Origin: Chryseobacterium sp. OV279
Lineage (GTDB): Bacteria > Bacteroidota > Bacteroidia > Flavobacteriales > Weeksellaceae
Reading direction: 5' to 3'
Assembly: GCF_900128945.1 (NCBI RefSeq)
Contig: NZ_FQUD01000001.1
Coordinates: 1,725,450 to 1,789,449, forward strand
Length of the DNA stretch: 64,000 nt
The translations under genes were made by a program, and so were the position numbers. The notes beneath the pieces are model-generated. The model was given only the letters and a program-made list of their open reading frames with translations. It was not told the origin of the DNA and ran no database searches. Shown in pieces: positions 19,452 to 39,298 of the stretch (positions within the stretch are counted from its first letter, which is position 1; the number at the start of each line of letters is the position of its first letter).

Positions 19452-20387
19452 ATGAATCATTATACTTTCCAAAATATAAAAAAGATAAGCTGCTTGCTGG
19501 GATTCCTGATCACTCAGATAGCCCTCGCGCAAACCAATTATTTCAAACAGGGAATTCCAAAAGATAAAATTCTGGTCGTTGCCCATAGAGGCGATTGGAG
19601 GAATTATCCTGAAAACTCAGTAAAAGCCATAGAAGGAGCCATAAAACTGGGGGTTGACATCGTAGAAATAGACCTGCAGAAAACAAAAGACGGCCAACTG
19701 ATTGTAATGCACGACAAGAAATTAGACCGTACAACGACGGGCATGGGAGAAATTTCAGAAACTTCGCTTGCAGAGATAAAACCTTTATTTCTTAAAAACG
19801 GAGCCGGGATGCCTACAAGAGAAAAAGTGCCTACGCTTGAAGAAGTATTGAATTTCGTTAAAGACAAAAGAATCATGTTGAATCTGGATAAAGGATGGGA
19901 CTTTATTGAGCAGGTTAGACTGCTTACCGAGAAAACAGGAACCACGGAACAGATTATTCTGAAAGGAAATAAAAAAGCTTCGGAATTAAAAAAAGAAGTC
20001 GGACAGAAACTGGATCACATCATCTATATGCCTATGGTTTGGCCGGAAGATTACAGTATTTATAAACGGGATGAGGTCCTTAATCCCGCAGAATACATCA
20101 GGGATTTTTCTAAAATATTCAGTCCTGTGGCGTATGAAGTGATTATCAAAGATGATACCCCAAAAGCGGATGAATTGTTAAAGCTGATCCGCGACGCCCA
20201 TGCGATGATCTGGATCAATGCCTTGTGGCCGGAATTATGTGCAGGACACGATGATGATAAAGCAATAGATAATCCCGACGAAAACTGGGGCTGGATGATC
20301 CGAAAAGGAGCTCATATTATTCAAACCGACAGACCGCAGGAGCTGATCAGGTATTTAAAATCAAAAAATTTAAAGTATGAAAACTAG
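19452..20387 (+). CDS. glycerophosphodiester phosphodiesterase, paralogue 1
   Basis: This 311-residue exported enzyme (signal peptide to about residue 26, ...TQIALAQ) is of the GDPD/UgpQ TIM-barrel family, which splits glycerophosphodiesters into glycerol-3-phosphate and an alcohol. The core motif is intact: VAHRGDW with PENS, then VEIDLQKTKDGQLIVMHD, giving the catalytic His pair and metal-binding Glu/Asp. It ends with the family's IQTDRPQELI. It overlaps the next gene by 11 bases. Its place after SusCD suggests it processes what the receptor imports, in the periplasm. Confidence 0.92.
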   Translation: MNHYTFQNIKKISCLLGFLITQIALAQTNYFKQGIPKDKILVVAHRGDWRNYPENSVKAIEGAIKLGVDIVEIDLQKTKDGQLIVMHDKKLDRTTTGMGEISETSLAEIKPLFLKNGAGMPTREKVPTLEEVLNFVKDKRIMLNLDKGWDFIEQVRLLTEKTGTTEQIILKGNKKASELKKEVGQKLDHIIYMPMVWPEDYSIYKRDEVLNPAEYIRDFSKIFSPVAYEVIIKDDTPKADELLKLIRDAHAMIWINALWPELCAGHDDDKAIDNPDENWGWMIRKGAHIIQTDRPQELIRYLKSKNLKYEN

Positions 20388-21258
20388 AACGTTCATTTAT
20401 GCAATGTTGTTCATCTCAGGAATGGTTCTGGGGCAGAATCCTATTTCTCTTTCAAAATTTCCTCATGATAAAATAATGGTGGTTGCGCACCGGGCAGATT
20501 GGAGGGAAGCTCCGGAAAACTCTGTCATGGCCGTAAAAAAAGCGATTGAAAAAGGTGTCAATATGGTGGAAATAGATTTGGCCCTGACCAAGGACAGTGT
20601 ACTCGTTTTGATGCATGACAATACCATTGACAGGACGACGACAGGAAAAGGAAACCCTTCCGATTATACACTGGAAGAAATTAAAAAATTCTACCTGAGA
20701 GATGGGTTGGGCGTTCCTACACAAATGCGGATTCCTACCCTTGAAGAAATATTGGATACAACACAGGGAAAAGTATTCATCAATCTGGATAAAGCGTTTG
20801 ATTATTTTAATCTCGTTTATCCTGTTTTAAAGAAAAGAAACCTTTTTGATGAAGTTCTTTTTAAAGGGACCGCAACCTACGAAGAATTCAACAGGAAATA
20901 CGGGGCTATTAAAAATGAAATCCATTATATGCCGATTGTCCGACTGGCTAACAATGAAGGCTGGCCAAAAATAAATGACTATCTGAACCATTATAAAGTC
21001 TATGGTTTTGAACTGACTTTAGGTATGGATGAAAGCCATATGATCAATTTTAAGGACATTCAGAAAAGCGGAGCCCGAATTTGGGTGAATTCTCTATGGG
21101 CACAGCAAAGTGCAGGACACAATGATGATCTCGTCCTTGAAAACCCTGATGCTTACGAATGGTTTGTAAAAAATAATATCAATACGATTCAGACCGACCG
21201 CCCTAAAGAACTGATTGATTTTCTGAAAAGAAAAAAGCTTTATGCTCGGGTAAAATAA
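20377..21258 (+). CDS. glycerophosphodiester phosphodiesterase, paralogue 2
   Basis: This 293-residue protein is clearly homologous to the preceding gene product along its length and is also exported (signal peptide ending LGQN). Differences sit at conserved places: HRADW instead of HRGDW, and TKDSVLVLMHD instead of a TKDG motif. The catalytic His residues, PENS and VEID are kept. It may have a shifted substrate preference or reduced activity. Its start codon lies inside the end of the upstream gene (11-base overlap), implying translational coupling. It is the last gene of the block and is followed by a terminator. Confidence 0.9.
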   Translation: MKTRTFIYAMLFISGMVLGQNPISLSKFPHDKIMVVAHRADWREAPENSVMAVKKAIEKGVNMVEIDLALTKDSVLVLMHDNTIDRTTTGKGNPSDYTLEEIKKFYLRDGLGVPTQMRIPTLEEILDTTQGKVFINLDKAFDYFNLVYPVLKKRNLFDEVLFKGTATYEEFNRKYGAIKNEIHYMPIVRLANNEGWPKINDYLNHYKVYGFELTLGMDESHMINFKDIQKSGARIWVNSLWAQQSAGHNDDLVLENPDAYEWFVKNNINTIQTDRPKELIDFLKRKKLYARVK

Positions 21259-26062: not shown

Positions 26063-26716
26063 ATGAAAACCGGAATCATTGTAATAGATCCGGGGCATGG
26101 CGGCATGGGAAATGTTGGCGGCTCCGATGGTAATCACGCGGTTTCCGCACTGGGAGACCTTGAAAAAAACTTAACTCTTGAGATTGGTCTTCTCCTCAAT
26201 ACTGAATTGAAATCAAAATCTCACCAAGTTTATCTCACCAGAGACACAGACCGGAATTTATCCCTTAAAGACAGAGCAAATCTCGCCCTGACCATGAAAG
26301 CAGACGTTTTCCTTTCCCTGCATTTTAACGGCTGGACAGATACCACCACACAGGGCACGGAAACGTTCATCTATCCCGGTGCTGACAGTAATTCTTCATT
26401 GCTGGCCTCTTCCGTACAGCAAAGACTGGTACAGACCACAAAATACAAAAACAGGGGAGTGAAAGAACTGCAGCTGGGTGTACTCAATCCTGCCTATCAT
26501 TTTCCTAAGACAGCCCGTGCTTTGGCTGAAATCAGTTTCATTACAGAAACAAAAGACGCACAGCGGCTGCGGGATGCGGACTATAAAAAATCTCTCGCAA
26601 AATCCCTGGCTGTAGCGATTGATGATTTTATCAATAAACAAAGCAGTATAAAGAAAATAAAAGCGTTGCCTGTGAATAGCAGCAGTATATTGAAAATGGA
26701 GGATTCCGATATTTAG
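26063..26716 (+). CDS. N-acetylmuramoyl-L-alanine amidase (Amidase_3), no signal peptide
   Basis: This 217-residue enzyme is of the Amidase_3 (AmiA/CwlC-like) fold that cuts the bond between muramic acid and the peptide stem. The zinc-site motifs are IDPGHGG (His12), the Glu in DLEKN, and SLHFNG. The catalytic Glu is in AEISFITE. The catalytic domain fills residues 1-190, and the last 25 residues are Lys/Ser-rich. There is no signal peptide or membrane segment, which is unusual for a housekeeping amidase and more like phage endolysins or enzymes exported by a dedicated route. It precedes the M23 peptidase by about 390 bases on the same strand. Confidence 0.9.
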   Translation: MKTGIIVIDPGHGGMGNVGGSDGNHAVSALGDLEKNLTLEIGLLLNTELKSKSHQVYLTRDTDRNLSLKDRANLALTMKADVFLSLHFNGWTDTTTQGTETFIYPGADSNSSLLASSVQQRLVQTTKYKNRGVKELQLGVLNPAYHFPKTARALAEISFITETKDAQRLRDADYKKSLAKSLAVAIDDFINKQSSIKKIKALPVNSSSILKMEDSDI

Positions 26717-26959
26717 AATTCAGCCTAAAACGGAGAACATCTGCTTAAAAAAACATTTTATCTACCTTCTAATTAAAATAGTACACAAAAGGGTAATTGA
26801 TTAGTGACCATATAATTCTAAAATTTGTAATTCAATAAGTACATTTCTTACTGATCAATAGATCAGCAGATATGGAATCGTACAATTTCGGGTAAAGTTT
26901 TTCAAAAAATTAGACCAGAAATAGGAAAGTATACATTCCTGATAATAGGAAACGGCTGA

Positions 26960-27094
26960 AGGAGATCATACCAAAAACTGATAGAACGAGACGAAATAAA
27001 CAAAGGTATTGGGAAAGGAGAGACCGTTGTAACTGTTTTAAGCTTTTTAAATCAAAATAATAGCTTAAAATACTGTAAACAATTTTTTAAATAA
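26960..27094 (+). pseudogene. possible end of a decayed gene
   Basis: A 44-codon frame without an ATG has coding-like composition (QKLIERDEINKG, then GETVVTVLSFLNQNN, ending CKQFFK) and stops 15 bases before the M23 gene. It may be chance. The rest of 26717-27109 is AT-rich, with a small CTGATC-AATA-GATCAG inverted repeat at 26851-26866 and no other feature. Confidence 0.25.
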
Positions 27095-27097
27095 CTA

Positions 27098-27109
27098 AAA
27101 ACTAATACC

Positions 27110-27112
<3 letters not shown>
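27098..27112 (+). promoter_or_regulatory. shared translation-start leader, copy 2
   Basis: AAAACTAATACCATG is identical to the leader at 23823-23837 and includes the start codon of the M23 peptidase gene. Confidence 0.55.
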
Positions 27113-28114
<1,002 letters not shown>

Positions 28115-28140
28115 TTTTCACTCCAAAAAACACATTTTCT

Positions 28141-31100
28141 ATGAGCCAATTAATACAAAATTATCTCAAAGGTTCAGACGCTAAGCCGCATCTTCGGTTG
28201 CTGGCTATTGTTGAACTTCAGGAAGCCAACCACGGTGAAAAAAATTGCTTTGGTGTTTTCGCAGGATGTAAGGGAAGCAAAACTGCGGACAGTGATTTTA
28301 ATTCCCTGCAGTTGAAATGGGACGGAATTTCTGGAGTAAAACCTAAATGGCAGACAGAGATGCCGCTTTGGTGTATTCCGCTAAAAGTAAGTACAGAAGG
28401 GCCTTATGCCTATGAACTTAATTATTCTAAAGATCCTGTAAAGAACAGTTATCCGTGCAGGAAGGCGGTTGTTAAGCTGTATAACGGAAAAGACGGAAAA
28501 ATAAATAGCTGGAAAGATTACAGCTTTCTTCCCGGGAAAGACGCTGAATACCAGGAATTGATCACTTCATGTACCTATTTTGACTTTAATCCAGCTTATG
28601 GAACCGTTCATTATATAATTGAAAATAATACAGATGAAGGAATTGGAATCTGGATCACTGATAAAAATGTCTCACTTCCCCTTTATGATAAAAAACTATT
28701 CCGTATGGGTGGAGTTATTAGTGAAATTATTGACACCCATAAGAAGTTCAATGAACTGGAAACATGGTTTGGCGTTAGGCAGCCTCAAGATAGCCCACAT
28801 GCTCCGTTTTTCACGGTTGATCCTAAAAATAAAGCCAATGCTAATGGCAATGATGTGCCCGTTCACTGGAAAAAAAACGGTCGTACCGATGATATTGTAA
28901 CGTTTGATTTTTCGAAAATACCCGTTAAAATCACTACTGATTTCAATGATCCCGACTTTGTATCAACCAAAATAAGAGACGAGAATACCGACGATAAATC
29001 TCAAATTGCATGGTTCGGAAAAGATGCCGTTCACAACAGTTTATCACTCCTTATTACCGATAGAAAGACAGTTTCAGGGGTAGCAGGCTCTTATCTGTCA
29101 AGAACTGGATCAAGTACTGTGATTAATTATTTGCTGTACCGGCACAACGAAGATTCGAAAGAAAACCGGACTATTCTCTGTAAAATAAAGGATACCACAA
29201 ACCTTATTAATACCTGGAACGAAAAAACAGAAAATAAAGCCGTATCGATTCTTGATACTGAAGGAGCGCAGCCCATAGGTATTGTTCCGAAAATTGAAAA
29301 CACAGTTTTGAATTCCGTTACGGTTATATATGATAATGTTGATGGGATCAATGCCAATTTTTCCAGTGTATACTTTTCCGGGCACGGAAAACCGGATATA
29401 TCATTTCCATTAATACGGGATAAAGAGCTTTATGCAAAAAATGCTTCTTTAGATGATACTGAAAACCCTTTAATACACCTTAATGAAGTGGTGTTTGAAC
29501 CTTCAAAAGGGAATGTAGCAGACAACGGAAGTGTCATTATTCTGAATGTAAAGGCAGGCGAGACATCTCCTGATCTCAATAACGTTATATTGCTTGACGG
29601 TTCATTTTCTTTTAAGCTGAAAAATTATTCCAAAGGAGACGAACTTATCGATAAACTGCAGGTCAGTTTCCAGCTTCAAAAAGCACAGAGACCACTCTTT
29701 TTATGGCAATGGTATAAAGATATAGATAAGGAAGATTCTATCCGGTACTGTTATTCCATCAATAAATTCAGGATTCCCGTTCAGGAAGTGAAAGCGTTTG
29801 GAAACGATCTCATCGGTAAAGAAAAACTGGTAGCGCCCTCATCGTTAGGAACGCTATCGGAAGGCTTCGGGGAGAGAAGTGAGCCTGCATTGGTGATTCC
29901 CTTACTCGAAAAAACAGAAAAAAGTACCGAAGGTCTTCAAAATGCATATTATCTGATGATGTCTGAAAGCTCGAATGTGGCTCAGAACTACAGACTGGAA
30001 ATGCAGCTGGAAGAAAAAGACCAGATGGGCGGAATAGACAGTACGGCCACCGTGGAAGCAGTAGTACTCAATGCCGCACCTCAGCAAATCGCTAAAATTA
30101 AAACACAACTTTTACGCTCACCCTCTACAGACGACGGAATTTATATTTTGGCGAGAAAATCAAATTTTTCCATCGACAGCGGTACCTGGGAAATTTATAC
30201 AGACAACGCCCTTGAAAAAGGATTCGAGCTTAGTCTTCCTGCACAGGCGGTTGGTGAGGCTTATATAAAAAGTATAACCAACAACGGAGGAGAACCGAAA
30301 GATGGCGAAGCCATTGACTACAAATTTTCTCCATCCGCAGTATTACAGATCGCCAGTGAACAGCTCAACCGCCAATATGTAACACCAGCCTGGAATCTTA
30401 AAAATATCTGGGGTGAAGTAGGAGACAGCAACCCGGGATTACAGCTTATTAATGCAAAATTTGAGTTACTTTATGGTTTAGGTGCCCAGTTAGAGAATAA
30501 AAATGCATTTATTGCAGAACTGGCCCTCAAATTAGGCGCTATACCCAATCCTCCACAAAACAATATTGTCTGGAAAGAATCAAAAGTACAGGAAGAAGCA
30601 TTTAAAACGCTGTATATGAAATACCGGGATTTATACAGATCCTGGCAGAGCAGGCTGTCTATCCTTGAAGTGTCTTCTTCCGAACCGTTTCGGCCGGGCA
30701 AATTTACCGATGGGATCAGCTATTTTATCCGCAGGGAGAAAAATCTGCTGAATGAGGATGGTTCGGTTAAAGAATATGGTAAAGGAGCTCAGTTTAGATG
30801 GCCAATAGGCCGGCAGGTTTCTCCGGCTCAGAATGATCAGCTATACCATAATCCTGAAGGTTTGGCGGGTGGCGCATTATATCCGTTTGAATCATTAGGT
30901 GTTTATGAAGAGTTGTGGCGGGAAGGGATCAGCAAAGGCTCGTCTTCCGGAGAAATTGAGCAGCTGGCTTTTACCTCTCTGGGAGGTTATGGCAGGCAAA
31001 CGGCCAGATTTGCCAGTGATAAAACCGTTATAAAATCAACCACTTCTTTGGGAAGAACTCATTTTCATGCTGTAGAGCGTATCGGAAGAATAGGCGTTTT

Positions 31101-34100
31101 ATGGAACAGAGCCAAACATGTGATTGAATATGAACGTACTGTAATTCCTCCGGTTCAGTTTAAAAAAGAGCAGCCCGAACTTCTGGGACGACCTATCGTA
31201 AGAAAAGTAAGAGAGTATATCGAAATCCTGGAACCTGTCAGGAAATATCCGGACCTGGATGGTATGAGCCCGGACGGTTCAGGTTCTATAACAGGCTGTC
31301 AATTTAAAAGTATAAAAATACCTGTGTCTTCCTCTTGGGGAAGAAATGTGAAGGCGGGTGGCAAGGGGATCATTGGCTGGGAAATTCCTCTATGGAACAA
31401 ACATGCCGATCCTGAAATCTATCCCTTTCCCCAAATCCTGCTGGAATTGTTAGCTCCTAAAGGTGCTGAAATAAAAAATGTTCTTTCTCAGATGGAGAAT
31501 GTGGAAGACCTCTACTTTTATACGGATGTTCGCTCAGAAGTAGTATTTATTGATAAAAATAACCTGCCGGTACCTGTTAAAATAGAAGCCGATACAGATC
31601 GTTGGCCCCTGATAAAATATGTAGACTATACCGATCTGCCTATGGTGGATATACACAGAAATGCCAGACCTGCTTTGGGAAATACACCGGAGCTTATGGA
31701 TGCTCCCTTACCGGGACCGATAAGTATATTGCCCGGTTTTGAACGATTCTGCTTTAAAGTAAAACCTTCGGAAATAACCAGCTCAGTCAACGGAAGATAT
31801 GTAGAAAATTCCGAGATTAATGGGAAACTGCGGGTAGCAACGATGATGCGGAGTGCTCCAAAAGGGAATGAGCTGAAAACAGCATTATCAGGCGGAACAC
31901 TTCAAACAACAACGGTCATTAACCAACTTGCTTTTGATCCCAATAATATTCTGAGCCAGTGTGCAAACGGGCTGGAACGTGCCAATACAAAGCTGTTGTC
32001 AGGTATACTGCCGGCTAACATTACCGGATATGCTTCCGAAGCAGTGGAGAAAATCACTTTTTCTGTAAACCAGATTGATGCCATTAAACATGTACTGGTT
32101 TCAGCTCCTGAGGTGACTTATCTAAGTAATAATGTTTGGTCGGCCGCCAGCCATTTCGAACTTCCTACAAAATTACTTTGGAAAAAAACCGTCGAAAGTG
32201 CCGATGCATTTATAGCTTCACTCATTTCAAATTATGACCTGCTGACTGGTGAAGTGACTAAAAAGGTGAATGCAATAATGGCGGAGGCTAATGAAATAAC
32301 TGATGAGTTTATTGAGAAATTAGATCATGAAATCAATGGTCAGGTTGTATCTGTCCAAAAGATCATTGAACAGTTTTCTTTTGAAATAAGTTCGCTTGCC
32401 AATGAAGCGACGGGAATTATTAACCAGGGAGTAGACGTTACAGAACGCTTTTTACAACAGATTGATACCTATTTATCAGATGCTGAAAAAGAAATCCAAA
32501 GCATTAATCTGCATACTCCCGATGAGGTGAAAGATGAAATAGAAAGGCATTTAAATGTTAAAAGAAGAGATATTCTGGATCAGATGACCAATAATGTTCT
32601 GTTAAATAAATTAAATGCAAAGTTCAATTTCGAAAAGAAGATCAATGATTTATTTGACGACATACTTCAGGAAATACGTGAATCAGAGCTGTCTATCGGT
32701 TTTGCTGTAGACAAGACAAAAAAACTGCGCAATGATATCATCGATTATATTAATGCCAATAAGGGTTTGTCTAAAGAAATAAGAATAATAGTTGATGAAG
32801 AATCCGCAGCTCTTAAAGACGGTGTTAATACCATAGAAAGTGAGCTTTTAAAAAAACTGAAACAGCTCAGCAATACAATTTCGATTGAACATCTGAACCT
32901 TAAAGAAACCCTGAAAACCTTTAGCAAAGAGAAGAAGGAATTTATACAATCGGTCAACGGTTGGCTAAATAAGACAGTGATTGATATTAGGGGAATATTG
33001 GAACCCGGGCTTATAAAAGAATTTTCAACTATCCTGGTGAATGATCCCCAAAGTGAGATTGTTGGTTTTAAACCCCTTATCGATTATTTTAAGGAAGCTG
33101 ATGATTATATTAAAAACATCGCGAGGGAATTATCTTCCTTTTTTCATCAATTGGATCCCAATCAGTACAAAGCTCAGTTCAGCAAATACCTGGAGCGTTA
33201 TAAAAGCTATAAAGACCTGGAAGCTGCTATCGGAACTAAACCCCCAAACCCCAAAAGTATCCTGGAAGCAGCCAATAAATTTACCGAAGAAATTAATGAA
33301 GATCTCCGGGCGCTCACCGGAACATTACTTCGTACTTACTCGGAAGGCGAAAAAGCAAAGTATACATATAATGAGCTCAATGATGCGGTAAATACCACTT
33401 TATTCAATTACAGAGGTGTATATGATGAACTGGTTGCTCCCGGTCTTGGCTTCAACCGTAAGACTGTAGCGATGCTCGTAAGTACCGATTGGAAGAACGT
33501 GGAACAGCGTTTAACCATTACTCCTGTAATGACTAAATTCAATCAGTTAAAGGAAAATCTTTCTGCACTGGGCATCAGGCTGCCTTCTGTTTCTATTACC
33601 GATAAATTTTTAGCCCCTGCCAGAGAATGGGGAGAAGAAGCTCTGAAGAATTTTAAAAATTCTCTCCTGAGCAATTATGATTTTACCAATATTATAAAAG
33701 GAGCAGGCGGTCTTGATCTGGAACGCTTAATCCCCGGGTTTAAAATGCCGGACGCATTCAGAAATAATATTAAAATAATGCACGGGACCGATGTCAACAA
33801 CCTAAAAGCCTGGGTAAAAGCGGAAACCAATATGAGTCTTCCCAAACGCGAAGAGCTTTTTGCCATAGGACCGGTAAGCGTATCATTGGACAAAGCAGCT
33901 ACTCTGGTCGGAAATGTAAGAGCAGAAATTGATGCAGACAGCAAAGTCGAAAAAGAGAACCACGGATCGCTTACAGGTTCTTTTATCATAGGATTGCAGG
34001 GCACAGAATTAATGCGTTTCAGAGATGCTAAGATCACTTGCGTTAATGATAAATATGATTTTGATTTGGATCCCAGCAGGATGGAAATGTCCGGACTGTT

Positions 34101-34809
34101 ACAGTTAATTACGGATGCCACTAAAAATATTCCTGCAGCATCTGAAGACGGTGAAGAGACTTCCGTGTTTAAGATTGATATTTTAAAAACAAAGTATGAG
34201 AATACCAATGTTGAAGTCCCATACGGAGTGAATGCTTCTCTGGATATTCCGCCCATCACGATAGGCGGTGGTCCTACGAATATCACCAATCTTGCTTTTG
34301 GAGGATATTTTAAAATGAAAGCTTTTGATGTTGAGAAAAAAACACTGGACTTTAGCTTGGGATTAGGATTTTACCTCGGAAAACGGGAAGCTCCGTTTAT
34401 TTTTACCGCCTTTATATTCGGTGGCGGCGGCTTTGTCGACTGTTCGGTGGATTACACGCCTTCTTTAAGCAATAGCCTGAATGTCAATTTTGCCATGAGT
34501 GTACAGGCAAGTGCTGCCTTGGCTTTTAATGCCGGCTGGATCTACGGTAGTGTAATGGTAGGAATGGGCATAGAAGTAATGTATGTCAAAAAGGCTCTCG
34601 GGCCTGGAAGCAGGACGAGTGTTATCATGTTCATACAGTTTATCGGGCATGTATGCGTCGTTCGTATTATTCATGTTTTTCTGGTTGTACGCCTTGCCAT
34701 TGCCTATGACGGTCAAAAAATGACAGGTACCGGAAGAATAAAAGCCTCCATGAGAATTTGCAGATTTTTCACCCTAAAAGTGGAAAAAAATTACACCCAT
34801 AACTTTTAA
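28141..34809 (+). CDS. giant protein of unknown function (2222 residues)
   Basis: I cannot assign a family. There is no signal peptide. Residues 1 to about 900 look beta-rich and mixed, with many short acidic/aromatic segments. Around 970-1040 is a conserved-looking stretch (LGRTHFHAVERIGRIG ... RPIVRKVREYIEILEP). Residues about 1370-1720 are a long charged helical region likely to form coiled coils. Residues about 2050-2145 are Gly-rich with alternating hydrophobic residues (for example FSLGLGFYLG, FTAFIFGGGGFV and GSVMVGMGIEV), suggesting beta-barrel or amphipathic strands. The last 70 residues are hydrophobic and basic. I recall large uncharacterised actinobacterial and myxobacterial proteins with a similar Gly-rich C-terminus, unchecked. 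It lies between the M23 peptidase gene (26 bases) and the 1491-residue gene (13 bases), so the three form an operon. Confidence 0.85.
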   Translation: MSQLIQNYLKGSDAKPHLRLLAIVELQEANHGEKNCFGVFAGCKGSKTADSDFNSLQLKWDGISGVKPKWQTEMPLWCIPLKVSTEGPYAYELNYSKDPVKNSYPCRKAVVKLYNGKDGKINSWKDYSFLPGKDAEYQELITSCTYFDFNPAYGTVHYIIENNTDEGIGIWITDKNVSLPLYDKKLFRMGGVISEIIDTHKKFNELETWFGVRQPQDSPHAPFFTVDPKNKANANGNDVPVHWKKNGRTDDIVTFDFSKIPVKITTDFNDPDFVSTKIRDENTDDKSQIAWFGKDAVHNSLSLLITDRKTVSGVAGSYLSRTGSSTVINYLLYRHNEDSKENRTILCKIKDTTNLINTWNEKTENKAVSILDTEGAQPIGIVPKIENTVLNSVTVIYDNVDGINANFSSVYFSGHGKPDISFPLIRDKELYAKNASLDDTENPLIHLNEVVFEPSKGNVADNGSVIILNVKAGETSPDLNNVILLDGSFSFKLKNYSKGDELIDKLQVSFQLQKAQRPLFLWQWYKDIDKEDSIRYCYSINKFRIPVQEVKAFGNDLIGKEKLVAPSSLGTLSEGFGERSEPALVIPLLEKTEKSTEGLQNAYYLMMSESSNVAQNYRLEMQLEEKDQMGGIDSTATVEAVVLNAAPQQIAKIKTQLLRSPSTDDGIYILARKSNFSIDSGTWEIYTDNALEKGFELSLPAQAVGEAYIKSITNNGGEPKDGEAIDYKFSPSAVLQIASEQLNRQYVTPAWNLKNIWGEVGDSNPGLQLINAKFELLYGLGAQLENKNAFIAELALKLGAIPNPPQNNIVWKESKVQEEAFKTLYMKYRDLYRSWQSRLSILEVSSSEPFRPGKFTDGISYFIRREKNLLNEDGSVKEYGKGAQFRWPIGRQVSPAQNDQLYHNPEGLAGGALYPFESLGVYEELWREGISKGSSSGEIEQLAFTSLGGYGRQTARFASDKTVIKSTTSLGRTHFHAVERIGRIGVLWNRAKHVIEYERTVIPPVQFKKEQPELLGRPIVRKVREYIEILEPVRKYPDLDGMSPDGSGSITGCQFKSIKIPVSSSWGRNVKAGGKGIIGWEIPLWNKHADPEIYPFPQILLELLAPKGAEIKNVLSQMENVEDLYFYTDVRSEVVFIDKNNLPVPVKIEADTDRWPLIKYVDYTDLPMVDIHRNARPALGNTPELMDAPLPGPISILPGFERFCFKVKPSEITSSVNGRYVENSEINGKLRVATMMRSAPKGNELKTALSGGTLQTTTVINQLAFDPNNILSQCANGLERANTKLLSGILPANITGYASEAVEKITFSVNQIDAIKHVLVSAPEVTYLSNNVWSAASHFELPTKLLWKKTVESADAFIASLISNYDLLTGEVTKKVNAIMAEANEITDEFIEKLDHEINGQVVSVQKIIEQFSFEISSLANEATGIINQGVDVTERFLQQIDTYLSDAEKEIQSINLHTPDEVKDEIERHLNVKRRDILDQMTNNVLLNKLNAKFNFEKKINDLFDDILQEIRESELSIGFAVDKTKKLRNDIIDYINANKGLSKEIRIIVDEESAALKDGVNTIESELLKKLKQLSNTISIEHLNLKETLKTFSKEKKEFIQSVNGWLNKTVIDIRGILEPGLIKEFSTILVNDPQSEIVGFKPLIDYFKEADDYIKNIARELSSFFHQLDPNQYKAQFSKYLERYKSYKDLEAAIGTKPPNPKSILEAANKFTEEINEDLRALTGTLLRTYSEGEKAKYTYNELNDAVNTTLFNYRGVYDELVAPGLGFNRKTVAMLVSTDWKNVEQRLTITPVMTKFNQLKENLSALGIRLPSVSITDKFLAPAREWGEEALKNFKNSLLSNYDFTNIIKGAGGLDLERLIPGFKMPDAFRNNIKIMHGTDVNNLKAWVKAETNMSLPKREELFAIGPVSVSLDKAATLVGNVRAEIDADSKVEKENHGSLTGSFIIGLQGTELMRFRDAKITCVNDKYDFDLDPSRMEMSGLLQLITDATKNIPAASEDGEETSVFKIDILKTKYENTNVEVPYGVNASLDIPPITIGGGPTNITNLAFGGYFKMKAFDVEKKTLDFSLGLGFYLGKREAPFIFTAFIFGGGGFVDCSVDYTPSLSNSLNVNFAMSVQASAALAFNAGWIYGSVMVGMGIEVMYVKKALGPGSRTSVIMFIQFIGHVCVVRIIHVFLVVRLAIAYDGQKMTGTGRIKASMRICRFFTLKVEKNYTHNF

Positions 34810-34822
34810 TTAGCACCAAGAC

Positions 34823-37800
34823 ATGAATAATTATTTACAAATAGCCATAGATCCAAGCTGCATCCAAACCACTGATGATGCAGGAACTCCGCAAATGACA
34901 GTGGCCGTAAGCATTACCGGTCTGTCATTTGACAAAACGGATACGAGGGAAGAATTTGAGGCAGCAAAGGAGTTGTTGAAAAATTTTAATACCCATCTTC
35001 AGCACAACAGAATCAGACTTTATTTTCTTAGCGACACCGATACGGTATATGGATATGAAGATTGTGCTATCGTTGGAAATTCAACAGCTGGTTTACCTAG
35101 TGAATATTTAAATTATATACAAAATGAGCTGCTACAGAATATTAAAGATGAAGCACATTTAGAATATAAATTTAGAGGAATAAACGAAGAGATTAGTGTT
35201 GAGGATAGGAACTTTAAGGAGGAGGAATATATAAACGCCGGAGAAGGCTATTCCAATATGGCTTTCGCCAATTTTTCCCAAATGCTGGCACCTCTGAACG
35301 AACAGGTAGGACTTGTACTTTTCGGAAAACAGGATATAACAGATCCTACACAGCTGAATATTCCTGCGGGAACAACAAAATTCCTGGCATTTCCTTTACA
35401 TGATACTGAACCGGCAGCCGGCCCACGGCCAATCGGTTCCGGGATTTGGGAACTGAAGTATGGTCAGACGGATGAGGAGGGCATAAGCTTCGAGAATAAG
35501 TATATCTGCATTGAAACGGAAATTCCCGAAGAAACGGTTCAAAAGGGGAATATCCATCTCAGAGATGAAAAGGGAAATTTTGATGGAAAAGTTGAGATTG
35601 ATGTACTGCAGGATCTTGACTGGAGCACAGATTATTATAACAGTATAGGATCCTATTTAGATTTTTCCTTTCTGCTGCAGGACTGCCTGGGTGATGCCAA
35701 AAGCATTGAACTCATTGCGGCTGATGAAAAGTCATTTGAAAAAAACATCAGAGCTATTGATGGGCTGATGTGGCGGTTGGTATTAGAACCGTTCTTTCCT
35801 CATACTAAAGAATTACCTGATGGAAGCGGTTATTTTGAGGAGCAGATCGATCCGGTTGTATATAAGTCATGGGTGGATACCACAAAGACCAATGCCAACT
35901 TAAAAAAACTGACAAAAAAATTAAAAGAAATCCTTCTTACTGATTGGACGGATAATAAAATCGTTCTTAAGGAAGCATACCGCTTCTGCCGGAAAATGGA
36001 TGAAACGACCCAAACCGTTGAATTATCACTTCCCGAAAATGAATCAAAAACAGAATGGGTGGGCAAATGGACAGAATCCTGGGCCGCTGTTCTTGAAGAT
36101 TGCCGGCAATTGGCAACACCTGAAAAAAGGATCATTATCGGCAGACTGCTGGATGAAACGATGAAATTTGTTAATCAAAATTCTCCACCAAAGCCAATTG
36201 TGCAGGAAAGATACCTTTTAGAATGTATTGCGCAGTATAATCAGGCTGTGTACTACCATCAATACCAAATTTCAGGAGCTGTATCTATTGGAGAATTTAT
36301 GTCAAAACTCGAAACGGATATTGTACAGGTTTGGGAAAACATCAAAAAAGATCCGTTATGCCTTCTGAATTTCCTGTACGTGGATGAAGGAGAAGAATCC
36401 GACGACATAAAAAAATTGGTTAACGATTATCTGACAGACCATGTAAAAGGATTAAAGGCTAAGATTAAAAAAGAAAAAGCGCCTGTTTATGATCCTCCAG
36501 CTATACAGGTAAAGGTATATTCTGACGACAGGATACATAACGATACCGATGATATATCGGACGAAATTGCAGGATTCGTACTGTTGAATCAGCGAAGCAG
36601 GGAACCTTATGTAAAAGAATTTGAACCCGCATCCTGGCATTATCTGAATAAAACAACGTTGACCATTAATGATACCGATACCGGGATGACAATTCTTAAA
36701 CCCTTATTCCTGCCGGAAGTGGATGGAATGCCCCTGCTGTCTTTATCCTTAACCAATCATAAGCGCGGCATTGTAGAACCCAATCTTGCACTGCATAATA
36801 CGCTACAGGCACCCGGAACTGCCACCAGCAATAAAACCAAATTATCCCCTTATAAAATGGATTTTAAATGTCCGGAATTCTGGTACGGATACCATTATCA
36901 GTTTGTGGGATTTGTGGTATTAAACAGTGGTGTTCTGCCTCCTGTGCTGAGATCGGGCAGCAGTTTAAATGCCTTTGCGCAAAGTCCGGTCATTACTGAA
37001 GACAACAGTTTGGTTAAAAATTATCATCACCTTAGAAAAGTGGCTGTTGCATCCCCTAATGTATCACCGGAGATCAATGCATCTACGAGGCGGTTTTCGC
37101 ATCAGGAACCTCCCTCAGATTTTATGCCACTGGCAAAAGAACTGTCTTTCTGGAAAGAAAAGGAATATACCCACCTTACGCTTTCCGGATCAGAGACCTT
37201 TAATCAGGTAATAACCTTCGATATTTCCAAGGCTACGACGGGCATTTGGGACTGGTTTGCGTTTGAAAAGAAAACACTGAATGAATTGCTGGAATATCAG
37301 GGTACAGATAAATTACTGGAAGCAGTCAAAGCATTTTTAAACAAAGATGAAAGTGATACCCAAAAAAGTGATCTTAAACTACCGGATCCGGCTGTATCTG
37401 ACCTGATTCTAGTTGAATGGAGCACCGCATTTCCAAAGGCAACCGCAATGGACAGTTTTGAACTCGACAGCAAACATAAAGAACCATTTACGGTGTCCTG
37501 GAACAAAGATTCAACAGGATATAATAAAACTGACAATATCTTTACGGTAAAAAAAGGCGAAATTATCGAAATGAAATTTCTGTCGCTGGTCGATCAGAAA
37601 TACTTCGTTAAAGGAGGAAATGAAGAAATGCTGCACGAGTCTCTGATTCCGGAAGACAGAGCGGCGCATACTTATAAAAACTATTTAACATTTGCGCCTG
37701 TTTCTTATTGCTTTGAGGCGGCAAAACATCCTTCCGGCCATCTGGAAGAGGAACTTTGGGAGCTCATCAACATTACAAGTGACAGTAACAAAGATGTTCC

Positions 37801-39298
37801 GTTTCACGATAATGATTATGTAAAAGTCTTTGCCGGGGCAAAAAAATTCAAAACCGACATCAGTTTAGAATTTGCCTATATCAGTAAATTGGAAGTAAGA
37901 CATCAGCGGTGGTATTGGGACGGACGGCTGGATGTATCCGGTGAACCGGAATATCTGAATAACACCCATGTTTCTCTTGATCCGGAACATTCTGAAAAAT
38001 ATAAAACCAGCCAGGCTATGGAATGGGAAGCCTGGTCATTCTCCACCAGACCTGATCATACGGGTACGGTCAGACAGGCCCGTTTAAAATCAAGTGACGG
38101 AGAGATCAACAGACAGTTATTGTTTTCCATCGAAAATAAAGCAGAAACAAAAGCACTCTACCATCGTTTTGCAGTCACGGCGTATTCCCGGTATGCATTT
38201 ATAGATAAGATAGATTCCGGAGAACATAGAGTGATAGAAGGAAAAATACCGATAGATAATACTTCGGTTAAAAACCAATGGAAACGTTTTATTCAGCTGT
38301 GTAAGCGTGAAGAAAAACTCTCAGCTCCGGTGGTAAGATTTTTCATTCCACTCACAGAATCCATTACGTCTGAACAGGAAAAAACACTAAATCAAAATGC
38401 AGCGCCTATTATGGCGGTTGTAGAAGGAAATGTCTTTAATGAGGCGGGTCTTGCCTATGGACTTGAAATCGGGATTGAAAAACTGAACTACCTTACTAAA
38501 GAAGGTAATACGGAAGCGTACCTTAATTTTGGAGCCAGTCCAAATTTATCTCATATCAAGTCTCTTGCGCTGTCCGGTAGTGGCAGTTCAGTTGATTCTG
38601 ATAATTTTATTTTTATGCCGCAGGGACCGGTAGGTTTTACATTTGATTTGGCTGCTGAAACGCCTAAAATCACTTCTTCAGCCTATCTGCTGGATTTATC
38701 AGATAAGCATTTATCAGATGCCGTCTGTACCCTGCAGGATCAACGCCAGGCATGGAGCTTAATGAGAGTCGCTACCCGAAGTGTTATCAAAAGGAGATTT
38801 TATGGAGGCCAGACAAAATTAGAAGATCTGACCAGCAAATGGTCTGAAAAAACCTGGGTAGAATATGTACTCGCCATCGATTCAACCATCCCTGAAGCGT
38901 GGATCAATGAAGTAAACAAATATGGAACGGTGGAAGTAAATACTACATCATTTAAAGATTTATCGGAGATCAACACCTCCTATGAAGAACAGTATATAGT
39001 GGTCACAAAATTGGAAAATGATATGGGAGGAATGCCTGTAGAAAGTTATTACGGAACGTACTGGTATGATAAGGAAAATAATATCCTAAAAAGCGATCAT
39101 GGAGAAAAAATCATTAGCAAAGGGCTTAAAGGATTTATAAGAATTCTCATTGTTCAGAAAGAAAGAAACTTCAGTTCTGATAAAAACATATGGGAACTGC
39201 TGTTCAATGCAGATGATACCAAAATACAGGCAGATGCGCAGGTAGCCAGACCTTTGGTCACAAAAAGAGTGCCTGTGGAGTTTAACAATATGCTCTGA
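34823..39298 (+). CDS. giant protein of unknown function (1491 residues)
   Basis: No family was recognised. There is no signal peptide, transmembrane helix or obvious repeat. The composition is that of a large soluble protein with many aromatic and acidic residues. Recognisable landmarks are a WYWDGRLDVSGE stretch near residue 1030 and VVRFFIPLTES near residue 1170. It starts 13 bases after the 2222-residue gene and is the last gene before a terminator-like hairpin, so the pair probably acts together with equal expression. Size and pairing suggest subunits of a large complex, but this is inference. Confidence 0.85.
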   Translation: MNNYLQIAIDPSCIQTTDDAGTPQMTVAVSITGLSFDKTDTREEFEAAKELLKNFNTHLQHNRIRLYFLSDTDTVYGYEDCAIVGNSTAGLPSEYLNYIQNELLQNIKDEAHLEYKFRGINEEISVEDRNFKEEEYINAGEGYSNMAFANFSQMLAPLNEQVGLVLFGKQDITDPTQLNIPAGTTKFLAFPLHDTEPAAGPRPIGSGIWELKYGQTDEEGISFENKYICIETEIPEETVQKGNIHLRDEKGNFDGKVEIDVLQDLDWSTDYYNSIGSYLDFSFLLQDCLGDAKSIELIAADEKSFEKNIRAIDGLMWRLVLEPFFPHTKELPDGSGYFEEQIDPVVYKSWVDTTKTNANLKKLTKKLKEILLTDWTDNKIVLKEAYRFCRKMDETTQTVELSLPENESKTEWVGKWTESWAAVLEDCRQLATPEKRIIIGRLLDETMKFVNQNSPPKPIVQERYLLECIAQYNQAVYYHQYQISGAVSIGEFMSKLETDIVQVWENIKKDPLCLLNFLYVDEGEESDDIKKLVNDYLTDHVKGLKAKIKKEKAPVYDPPAIQVKVYSDDRIHNDTDDISDEIAGFVLLNQRSREPYVKEFEPASWHYLNKTTLTINDTDTGMTILKPLFLPEVDGMPLLSLSLTNHKRGIVEPNLALHNTLQAPGTATSNKTKLSPYKMDFKCPEFWYGYHYQFVGFVVLNSGVLPPVLRSGSSLNAFAQSPVITEDNSLVKNYHHLRKVAVASPNVSPEINASTRRFSHQEPPSDFMPLAKELSFWKEKEYTHLTLSGSETFNQVITFDISKATTGIWDWFAFEKKTLNELLEYQGTDKLLEAVKAFLNKDESDTQKSDLKLPDPAVSDLILVEWSTAFPKATAMDSFELDSKHKEPFTVSWNKDSTGYNKTDNIFTVKKGEIIEMKFLSLVDQKYFVKGGNEEMLHESLIPEDRAAHTYKNYLTFAPVSYCFEAAKHPSGHLEEELWELINITSDSNKDVPFHDNDYVKVFAGAKKFKTDISLEFAYISKLEVRHQRWYWDGRLDVSGEPEYLNNTHVSLDPEHSEKYKTSQAMEWEAWSFSTRPDHTGTVRQARLKSSDGEINRQLLFSIENKAETKALYHRFAVTAYSRYAFIDKIDSGEHRVIEGKIPIDNTSVKNQWKRFIQLCKREEKLSAPVVRFFIPLTESITSEQEKTLNQNAAPIMAVVEGNVFNEAGLAYGLEIGIEKLNYLTKEGNTEAYLNFGASPNLSHIKSLALSGSGSSVDSDNFIFMPQGPVGFTFDLAAETPKITSSAYLLDLSDKHLSDAVCTLQDQRQAWSLMRVATRSVIKRRFYGGQTKLEDLTSKWSEKTWVEYVLAIDSTIPEAWINEVNKYGTVEVNTTSFKDLSEINTSYEEQYIVVTKLENDMGGMPVESYYGTYWYDKENNILKSDHGEKIISKGLKGFIRILIVQKERNFSSDKNIWELLFNADDTKIQADAQVARPLVTKRVPVEFNNML

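What the first reader, a model, noticed from the sequence alone, without database searches (positions are those of the whole stretch)
26063..39298. Candidate undescribed system: signal-less amidase, membrane-anchored M23 peptidase and two giant proteins
Two peptidoglycan hydrolases of different specificity (amidase with intact zinc-site motifs, M23 with intact HxxxD/HxH) stand next to a 26- and 13-base-spaced operon ending in two giants of 2222 and 1491 residues that match no family I know. None has a signal peptide; the M23 protein is membrane-embedded. No phage, T6SS or tail genes accompany them. A new wall-crossing assembly, lysis or delivery system is a reasonable inference, and so is a role in division or development.
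Basis: partly seen in the sequence, partly recalled or inferred. Interest (0 to 1): 0.8.

Follow-up and report, generated by a model that had tools for sequence, protein, structure and literature searches.

The report
Paired giant proteins with wall-cutting enzymes
A rare, swappable Chryseobacterium gene cluster makes two giant proteins of an undescribed family together with cell-wall-cutting enzymes, and relatives of the giant pair occur in distant bacterial phyla, often with an export signal instead of the enzymes, which suggests an unknown machine that works outside the cell.

Summary
In detail: a signal-less amidase, a membrane-anchored M23 peptidase and two giants (2222 and 1491 aa) with 26- and 13-bp gaps. 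The giants match nothing useful in Pfam, NCBIfam, PHROGs, PADLOC or PDB sequences. In 173 Chryseobacterium species giant A occurs in 7; the amidase (4) and the M23 protein (3) occur only inside those 7. In two species with 85-97% identical flanks, the same site holds giants only 25-34% identical and a different middle gene, so alleles are swapped. Giant A homologues followed by a second giant occur on Rhizobium, Streptomyces, Diaphorobacter, Agrobacterium and Ruegeria plasmids and in other Bacteroidota. Class I giant A mostly carries a Tat signal (10/13), and I saw no wall enzyme beside it. Class II (this window) never does (0/13) and often stands beside a wall enzyme that differs between lineages, sometimes next to phage tail genes. 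Best reading: the giants act outside the cell, and the class II wall enzymes with a membrane protein are a lysis or export cassette resembling a type 10 secretion system. No spanin was found, no holin was shown, and both structure predictions were too poor to give a function. New protein family; mechanism inferred.

The parts
26063..26716 (+). N-acetylmuramoyl-L-alanine amidase (Amidase_3), no signal peptide, no TM helix
   Evidence: Pfam PF01520 E 1.3e-40; orthologue in 4 of 173 Chryseobacterium, all giant-bearing; truncated remnants in front of giant A in CH25 (L011) and G016 (L012)
27110..28114 (+). Membrane-anchored M23 peptidase: three hydrophobic helices (YLATT), Gln-rich linker, M23 domain
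   Evidence: PF20303 31.7 bits, PF01551 E 4.4e-21; orthologue in 3 of 173, all giant-bearing
27116..27445 (+). YLATT / three-helix membrane region (residues 3-112)
   Evidence: Pfam match 52-120 and hydropathy
27764..28048 (+). M23 catalytic domain (residues 219-313)
   Evidence: solved M23 relatives such as zoocin A and lysostaphin
28141..34809 (+). Giant A, 2222 aa, class II (no Tat or other N-terminal signal)
   Evidence: homologues
30808..31875 (+). Giant A conserved core (residues about 890-1245)
   Evidence: 37-53% identity over residues 901-1100 to the distant class II homologues L053-L055; invariant block around residues 971-999
32038..33390 (+). Giant A coiled-coil-like helical rod (residues about 1300-1750)
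   Evidence: Heptad-like hydrophobic periodicity peaks here; homologues give weak apolipoprotein/coiled-coil matches at the corresponding place
33688..34806 (+). Giant A C-terminal beta domain (residues about 1850-2222), with invariant PF...GGGG motif
   Evidence: class I/class II profile match 99.8% over 296 columns; alignment; low-confidence beta-meander model
34823..39298 (+). Giant B, 1491 aa
   Evidence: a second giant directly follows giant A in the class II loci read; distances co-vary with giant A, Mantel r 0.985

Best explanation
The two giants are partners in one extracytoplasmic assembly. In class I, giant A mostly carries a Tat signal, so at least giant A is sent across the inner membrane. 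In class II, to which this window belongs, both giants are made without a signal and stay in the cytoplasm at first. Signal-less or membrane-tied wall hydrolases (here the amidase and the M23 enzyme) and a small membrane protein (here the three-helix YLATT part of the M23 protein; in relatives a 337/339- or 188/197-residue TM protein) then open the envelope locally or in a sacrificial subpopulation and let the giants out, in the way type 10 secretion / holin-endolysin cassettes release large signal-less proteins. Outside, giant A (conserved core, coiled-coil rod, hydrophobic beta C-terminus) and giant B act on another cell or surface. Shown: linkage, co-inheritance, lack of signals, Tat versus no-Tat split, exchange of the wall enzyme, allele swapping. 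Inferred: physical partnership, export route, extracellular action and target.
For: A second giant follows giant A from Bacteroidota to Rhizobiaceae and Streptomyces, and the class II distance matrices of A and B correlate (Mantel r 0.985, 0/5000 permutations; r 0.91 for the 50 far pairs). Tat motif in 10/13 class I and 0/13 class II giant A (Fisher p 1e-4, not corrected for ancestry; motif rate in shuffled N-termini 1%); a tatA gene lies beside the class I pair in S. meliloti. Class II loci carry wall enzymes of different families: amidase + M23-YLATT (window, JM1; M23-YLATT in CH25), amidase + 337/339-aa TM protein (G017, G536), M15-like 192-aa + 188/197-aa TM protein (G016, G509), M15_3-like (G285), Rv2525c-type glycoside hydrolase (L055), PG-binding protein (L017). 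Same chromosomal site, flanks 85-97% identical, but giants 25-34% and middle gene replaced. Precedents: T10SS releases signal-less YenTc and sits inside some Tc operons (PMC10847048); the holin-like TcdE secretes the signal-less C. difficile toxins (PMC12150058, abstract).
Against: No spanin-like ORF in the 393-bp gap or after giant B. The three kinds of membrane protein are not detectably related to each other (hhalign under 6%), and none is a known holin family. The M23 enzyme is itself membrane-tied, which a free endolysin would not be. L016 and L019 are signal-less pairs with no recognised wall enzyme nearby (judged by eye). Class I giant B has no Tat signal. Class I and II giant B are related only by position (hhalign 6%). 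Both structure predictions failed (pLDDT 47 and 36).
Confidence: 0.37

Rival explanations
1. The class II cassette is phage- or tailocin-derived: the wall enzymes are endolysins or tail lysins, and the giants are prophage cargo or structural proteins carried next to the tail-fibre region, kept after loss of the rest of the phage.
For: L053 and L055 (IMG/VR) carry the giants within about 6 kb downstream of clear tail genes (PHROG tail protein E 1e-234; tail fibre and minor tail matches), and G016 has a lysin and tail-fibre-like genes right after them.
Against: No match for giant A in 50,697 deposited phage records. No tail genes at the window, JM1, CH25, G017, G536 or G509 in the stretches read. 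Class I pairs lie on plasmids and chromosomes without annotated phage structural genes in the stretches read.
Confidence: 0.2
2. The giants build a wall-spanning or surface structure in living cells, and the amidase and M23 enzyme trim peptidoglycan locally to let it pass, without lysis.
For: Membrane-anchored M23 in the same probable operon as the giants (26- and 13-bp gaps); amidase strictly co-inherited; Salmonella T10SSs are reported to be non-lytic (PMC13284979).
Against: Class I and some class II pairs manage without such enzymes; the enzyme family changes freely between lineages, which fits release better than a built-in assembly factor.
Confidence: 0.16
3. A polymorphic antagonism system in which the wall enzymes are cargo that kills neighbours and the giants are the delivery body.
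For: Exchange of wall-enzyme family and strong allele divergence at one site with conserved flanks look like polymorphic effectors.
Against: No immunity gene was recognised beside the enzymes; the amidase is 77% identical where the giants are 34%, so the giants, not the enzyme, diverge fastest; no enzyme is fused to a giant.
Confidence: 0.13
4. Chance linkage: the giants are an island gene pair and the wall enzymes are unrelated neighbours carried along.
For: Most distant homologues lack wall enzymes; amidase and M23 are separated by 393 bp and may be separate transcripts.
Against: The M23 gene is 26 bp from giant A and is kept where CH25 carries the cassette at another site; wall-enzyme genes recur in unrelated class II lineages.
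Confidence: 0.14

Closest known systems
Type 10 secretion systems / phage-type lysis cassettes (YenLC, Serratia ChiWXYZ, TcdE)
   Same: Very large signal-less proteins encoded with signal-less wall hydrolases and a small membrane protein; some T10SSs sit inside toxin operons (PMC10847048)
   Different: No spanin found, no recognised holin, the hydrolase family changes between lineages, one hydrolase is membrane-tied, and the giants match no known cargo by the family and PDB sequence searches run here
YLATT-containing proteins (Pfam PF20303)
   Same: The membrane part of the M23 protein passes the YLATT cut-off
   Different: No MoxR, vWA, GTPase or YEATS-type partner among the neighbouring genes scanned; YLATT is not in the cassettes of G016, G017, G536 and G509
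Contractile injection systems (T6SS, eCIS)
   Same: Large multi-gene secreted machines often associated with wall hydrolases
   Different: No match to the two sheath families tested in this genome
Outer-membrane beta-barrels / autotransporter domains
   Same: The C-terminal domain of giant A models as a long beta meander and VIA-align ranks barrels first (Z up to 12)
   Different: Model confidence is too low, matches are generic, and the domain also occurs in Streptomyces, which has no outer membrane

Membership tests
Type 10 secretion system | Peptidoglycan hydrolase without its own export signal | tested here: met
   Amidase 26063-26716 has no signal peptide or TM segment, nor has the M15-like protein of G016
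Type 10 secretion system | Holin | tested here: inconclusive
   Each Chryseobacterium cassette has a membrane protein, but no holin family matched
Type 10 secretion system | Spanin (Rz/Rz1 or u-spanin) | tested here: not met
   No ORF over 33 aa in the 393-bp gap and only a 38-aa ORF after giant B; a spanin elsewhere in the genome was not sought
Type 10 secretion system | Large cargo without a secretion signal | tested here: met
   0 of 13 class II giant A and 0 of 12 class II giant B have a Tat motif or N-terminal TM segment
Type 10 secretion system | Release of cargo depends on the cassette | not testable with these tools
   Needs deletion strains
Contractile injection system (T6SS/eCIS) | Contractile sheath gene | tested here: not met
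   No PF04984 or PF05943 match in G000; weak PF04984 hits only in G016 contig 7, below cut-off
Prophage or tailocin remnant | Head, tail or integrase genes beside the cassette | tested here: not met
   None in the window among the neighbours scanned; tail genes are present at L053, L055 and partly G016
YLATT-associated NTP-dependent conflict systems | YLATT domain | tested here: met
   31.7 bits against cut-off 26.7
YLATT-associated NTP-dependent conflict systems | NTPase or YEATS-type partner in the operon | tested here: not met
   Pfam scans of the four genes and of 20 neighbours show none
Outer-membrane beta-barrel | Membrane-inserted C-terminal barrel in giant A | tested here: inconclusive
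   VIA Z 12 to CymA and others, but pLDDT 47 and Foldseek TM about 0.1-0.2

The most novel reading that the evidence does not exclude
The giants define a new kind of two-protein extracellular machine spread over several phyla. It exists in two export versions, one Tat-signalled and one served by a dedicated, interchangeable wall-opening cassette, and its alleles are swapped at a fixed chromosomal site like those of antagonism systems.
Probability: 0.3. Interest if true: 0.85.

Novelty: categorically new. Interest (0 to 1): 0.62.

Why it matters
Proteins of 1,500-3,300 residues are costly, yet this pair is carried by plasmids, chromosomes and apparent prophages from Chryseobacterium to Streptomyces, with no family model and no paper found in the open library searched. 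If the Tat/lysis-cassette split is real, it is a natural experiment on how very large proteins leave bacteria, and it would add a lysis-type export route to Bacteroidota. The class label rests on the giants matching no known sequence family; a fold-level link to something known has not been excluded, because both structure models failed.

Tried and rejected
AlphaFold2 of giant A 1735-2222 gave pLDDT 47; Foldseek and VIA-align then listed porins, TonB receptors, LptD and autotransporter barrels, which I do not accept as a fold call. AlphaFold2 of the core 620-1245 gave pLDDT 36: unusable, not searched. Giant B profile scans of viral contigs found nothing. Giant B class I versus class II: no significant profile match. 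The idea that the YLATT, 339-aa and 197-aa membrane proteins are one family was not supported. A Bacteroidota promoter pattern scan was uninformative, and sigma-70-type and terminator hits were near the shuffled expectation. GC and GC3 of the giants do not differ from their neighbours, so composition gives no evidence of recent import. Paper searches for giants, YLATT/pYEATS or T10SS in Bacteroidota found nothing on this system.

Full report
Check of the observation. The amidase is a full-length Amidase_3 with the zinc-site residues in place by eye; the second protein is an M23 peptidase behind three hydrophobic helices that pass the Pfam cut-off for YLATT. The giants match no family in Pfam, NCBIfam, PHROGs or PADLOC at a meaningful score and no PDB sequence. 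The window is Chryseobacterium: the two closest loci are Chryseobacterium sp. JM1 and CH25, with giant A at 93% and 82%.

Distribution in the genus. Of 173 Chryseobacterium species genomes, 7 have giant A. The amidase orthologue is in 4 genomes and the YLATT-M23 orthologue in 3, all within those 7 (hypergeometric p 1e-6 and 4e-5, not corrected for shared ancestry). CH25 and G016 keep only an N-terminal remnant of the amidase in front of giant A. A class II core profile found no further carrier in 395 genomes of the class beyond the window's own, and only G285 in 296 genomes drawn from the phylum. The cassette is therefore rare and patchy.

Three cassette layouts occur in Chryseobacterium: amidase, YLATT-M23, giant A, giant B (window, JM1; CH25 with amidase remnant); amidase, a 337/339-residue multi-TM protein, giant A, giant B (G017, G536); and giant A, giant B, a 192-residue protein with an M15-like SPHEDGRGLD...HVH pattern by eye, a 188/197-residue TM protein (G016, G509), with a further CHAP/PG-binding lysin and tail-fibre-like genes in G016. 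Each has a membrane protein and at least one wall enzyme or likely wall enzyme, but not the same ones. The membrane proteins are not detectably related to each other.

One site, swapped alleles. In the window, G016, G017 and G536 the cassette lies in the same chromosomal neighbourhood, with 6PGD/G6PD on one side and, in the window, G016 and G017, the 987- and 589-residue genes on the other; JM1 shares both immediate flanks of the window. Flanking proteins of G017 and G536 are 85-97% identical to the window's, yet the giants are only about 34% (A) and 25% (B) identical, the amidase 77%, and the gene between amidase and giant A is replaced. G002 and G007 have other genes upstream of 6PGD; CH25 and G509 carry the cassette elsewhere. 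This is the pattern of a hot spot with exchanged alleles.

Distant homologues. tblastn found giant A relatives on Rhizobium and Sinorhizobium plasmids, and a profile found them in other Bacteroidota families, where giant A mostly starts with a twin-arginine signal. A query from that group then hit plasmids of Rhizobium, Cupriavidus, Diaphorobacter, Streptomyces, Agrobacterium, Sinorhizobium, Ruegeria and Paraburkholderia. In nearly all loci read, a second giant follows; the Paraburkholderia copy is broken into fragments. Class I and class II giant A are homologous: hhalign 99.8% over 296 columns of the C-terminal domain and, more weakly, 73.5% over part of the core. For giant B the two classes are linked only by position (6%). 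Within class II, giant A and B distances correlate strongly (Mantel r 0.985, 0/5000), as expected for a pair inherited together.

The export split. A Tat motif within the first 90 residues is present in 10 of 13 class I and 0 of 13 class II giant A proteins (Fisher p 1e-4; relatedness not corrected). In S. meliloti a tatA gene lies beside the class I pair. Annotated class I plasmid loci list no wall hydrolase within 10 kb, though those gene tables are incomplete and I did not scan every neighbour with Pfam. Class II loci often have one: besides Chryseobacterium, an M15_3-like protein in G285 (just below cut-off), an Rv2525c-type glycoside hydrolase in L055 and a PG-binding protein in L017. A CHAP-like protein in L053 and an HGC-motif protein in L017 are calls by eye that no library confirmed. 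L016 and L019 show none by eye. So the association is real but not universal.

Phage link. L053 and L055 are IMG/VR contigs in which the giants follow phage tail genes. No deposited phage record has giant A. No phage gene was found among the window neighbours scanned, and its genome has no match to the two contractile sheath families tested.

Anatomy of giant A. A variable N-terminal part, a highly conserved core (about 890-1245), a coiled-coil-like stretch (about 1300-1750) and a hydrophobic beta C-terminus with an invariant PF...GGGG motif. AlphaFold2 models were poor, so the barrel-like matches are not used. The C-terminal domain is also in Streptomyces, which argues against a simple outer-membrane barrel.

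Mechanism. Linkage, co-inheritance, absence of signals, the Tat split, enzyme exchange and allele swapping are shown. That the giants bind each other, leave the cell, and use the wall enzymes and membrane protein as a lysis or export cassette is inference, by analogy with T10SS release of YenTc and holin-dependent secretion of the C. difficile toxins (PMC10847048, PMC12150058; a non-lytic mode is reported in PMC13284979). I cannot file it as a T10SS: no spanin was found and no holin is shown.

Noticed in passing
L013:15475-17346 and L058:124-3672 (G016): Tail-fibre-like genes (279, 339, 1182 aa) follow the giants, M15-like, TM and lysin genes, without head or sheath genes nearby.
   Followed up: partly
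L053:1-8300 and L055:1-8150: Giant pairs directly downstream of phage tail or tail-fibre genes on IMG/VR contigs; L053 also has a serine recombinase-like ORF downstream.
   Followed up: partly
G016 contig 7: 47358-49920 (L097, L098): Two weak phage-sheath matches side by side, possibly a contractile system elsewhere in that genome.
   Followed up: no
L064:20667-20834: A tatA gene directly after a Tat-signalled giant pair on a Sinorhizobium meliloti plasmid.
   Followed up: no
L043:5338-10153, L050:532-4545, L052:5845-8756: Class I pairs in other Bacteroidota neighbour a secreted protein (RCC1 repeats in L050) and a second secreted, barrel-like protein.
   Followed up: partly
L063:22287-25709: An Agrobacterium vitis giant pair lies next to genes annotated dpdE/dpdF (7-deazaguanine DNA modification).
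   Followed up: no
L018:11751-18805: Giant A is split into two overlapping ORFs in Rhizobium leguminosarum RCAM1365: frameshift or sequencing error.
   Followed up: no
L011:8468-8722 and L012:16364-16654: Truncated amidase remnants with conserved start in front of giant A.
   Followed up: yes
L010:6242-7633: JM1 has an extra 463-residue gene between the amidohydrolase and the amidase that the window lacks.
   Followed up: no
window 19452-21258: Two adjacent GDPD-DUF4996 phosphodiesterase genes after a SusC/SusD pair.
   Followed up: no
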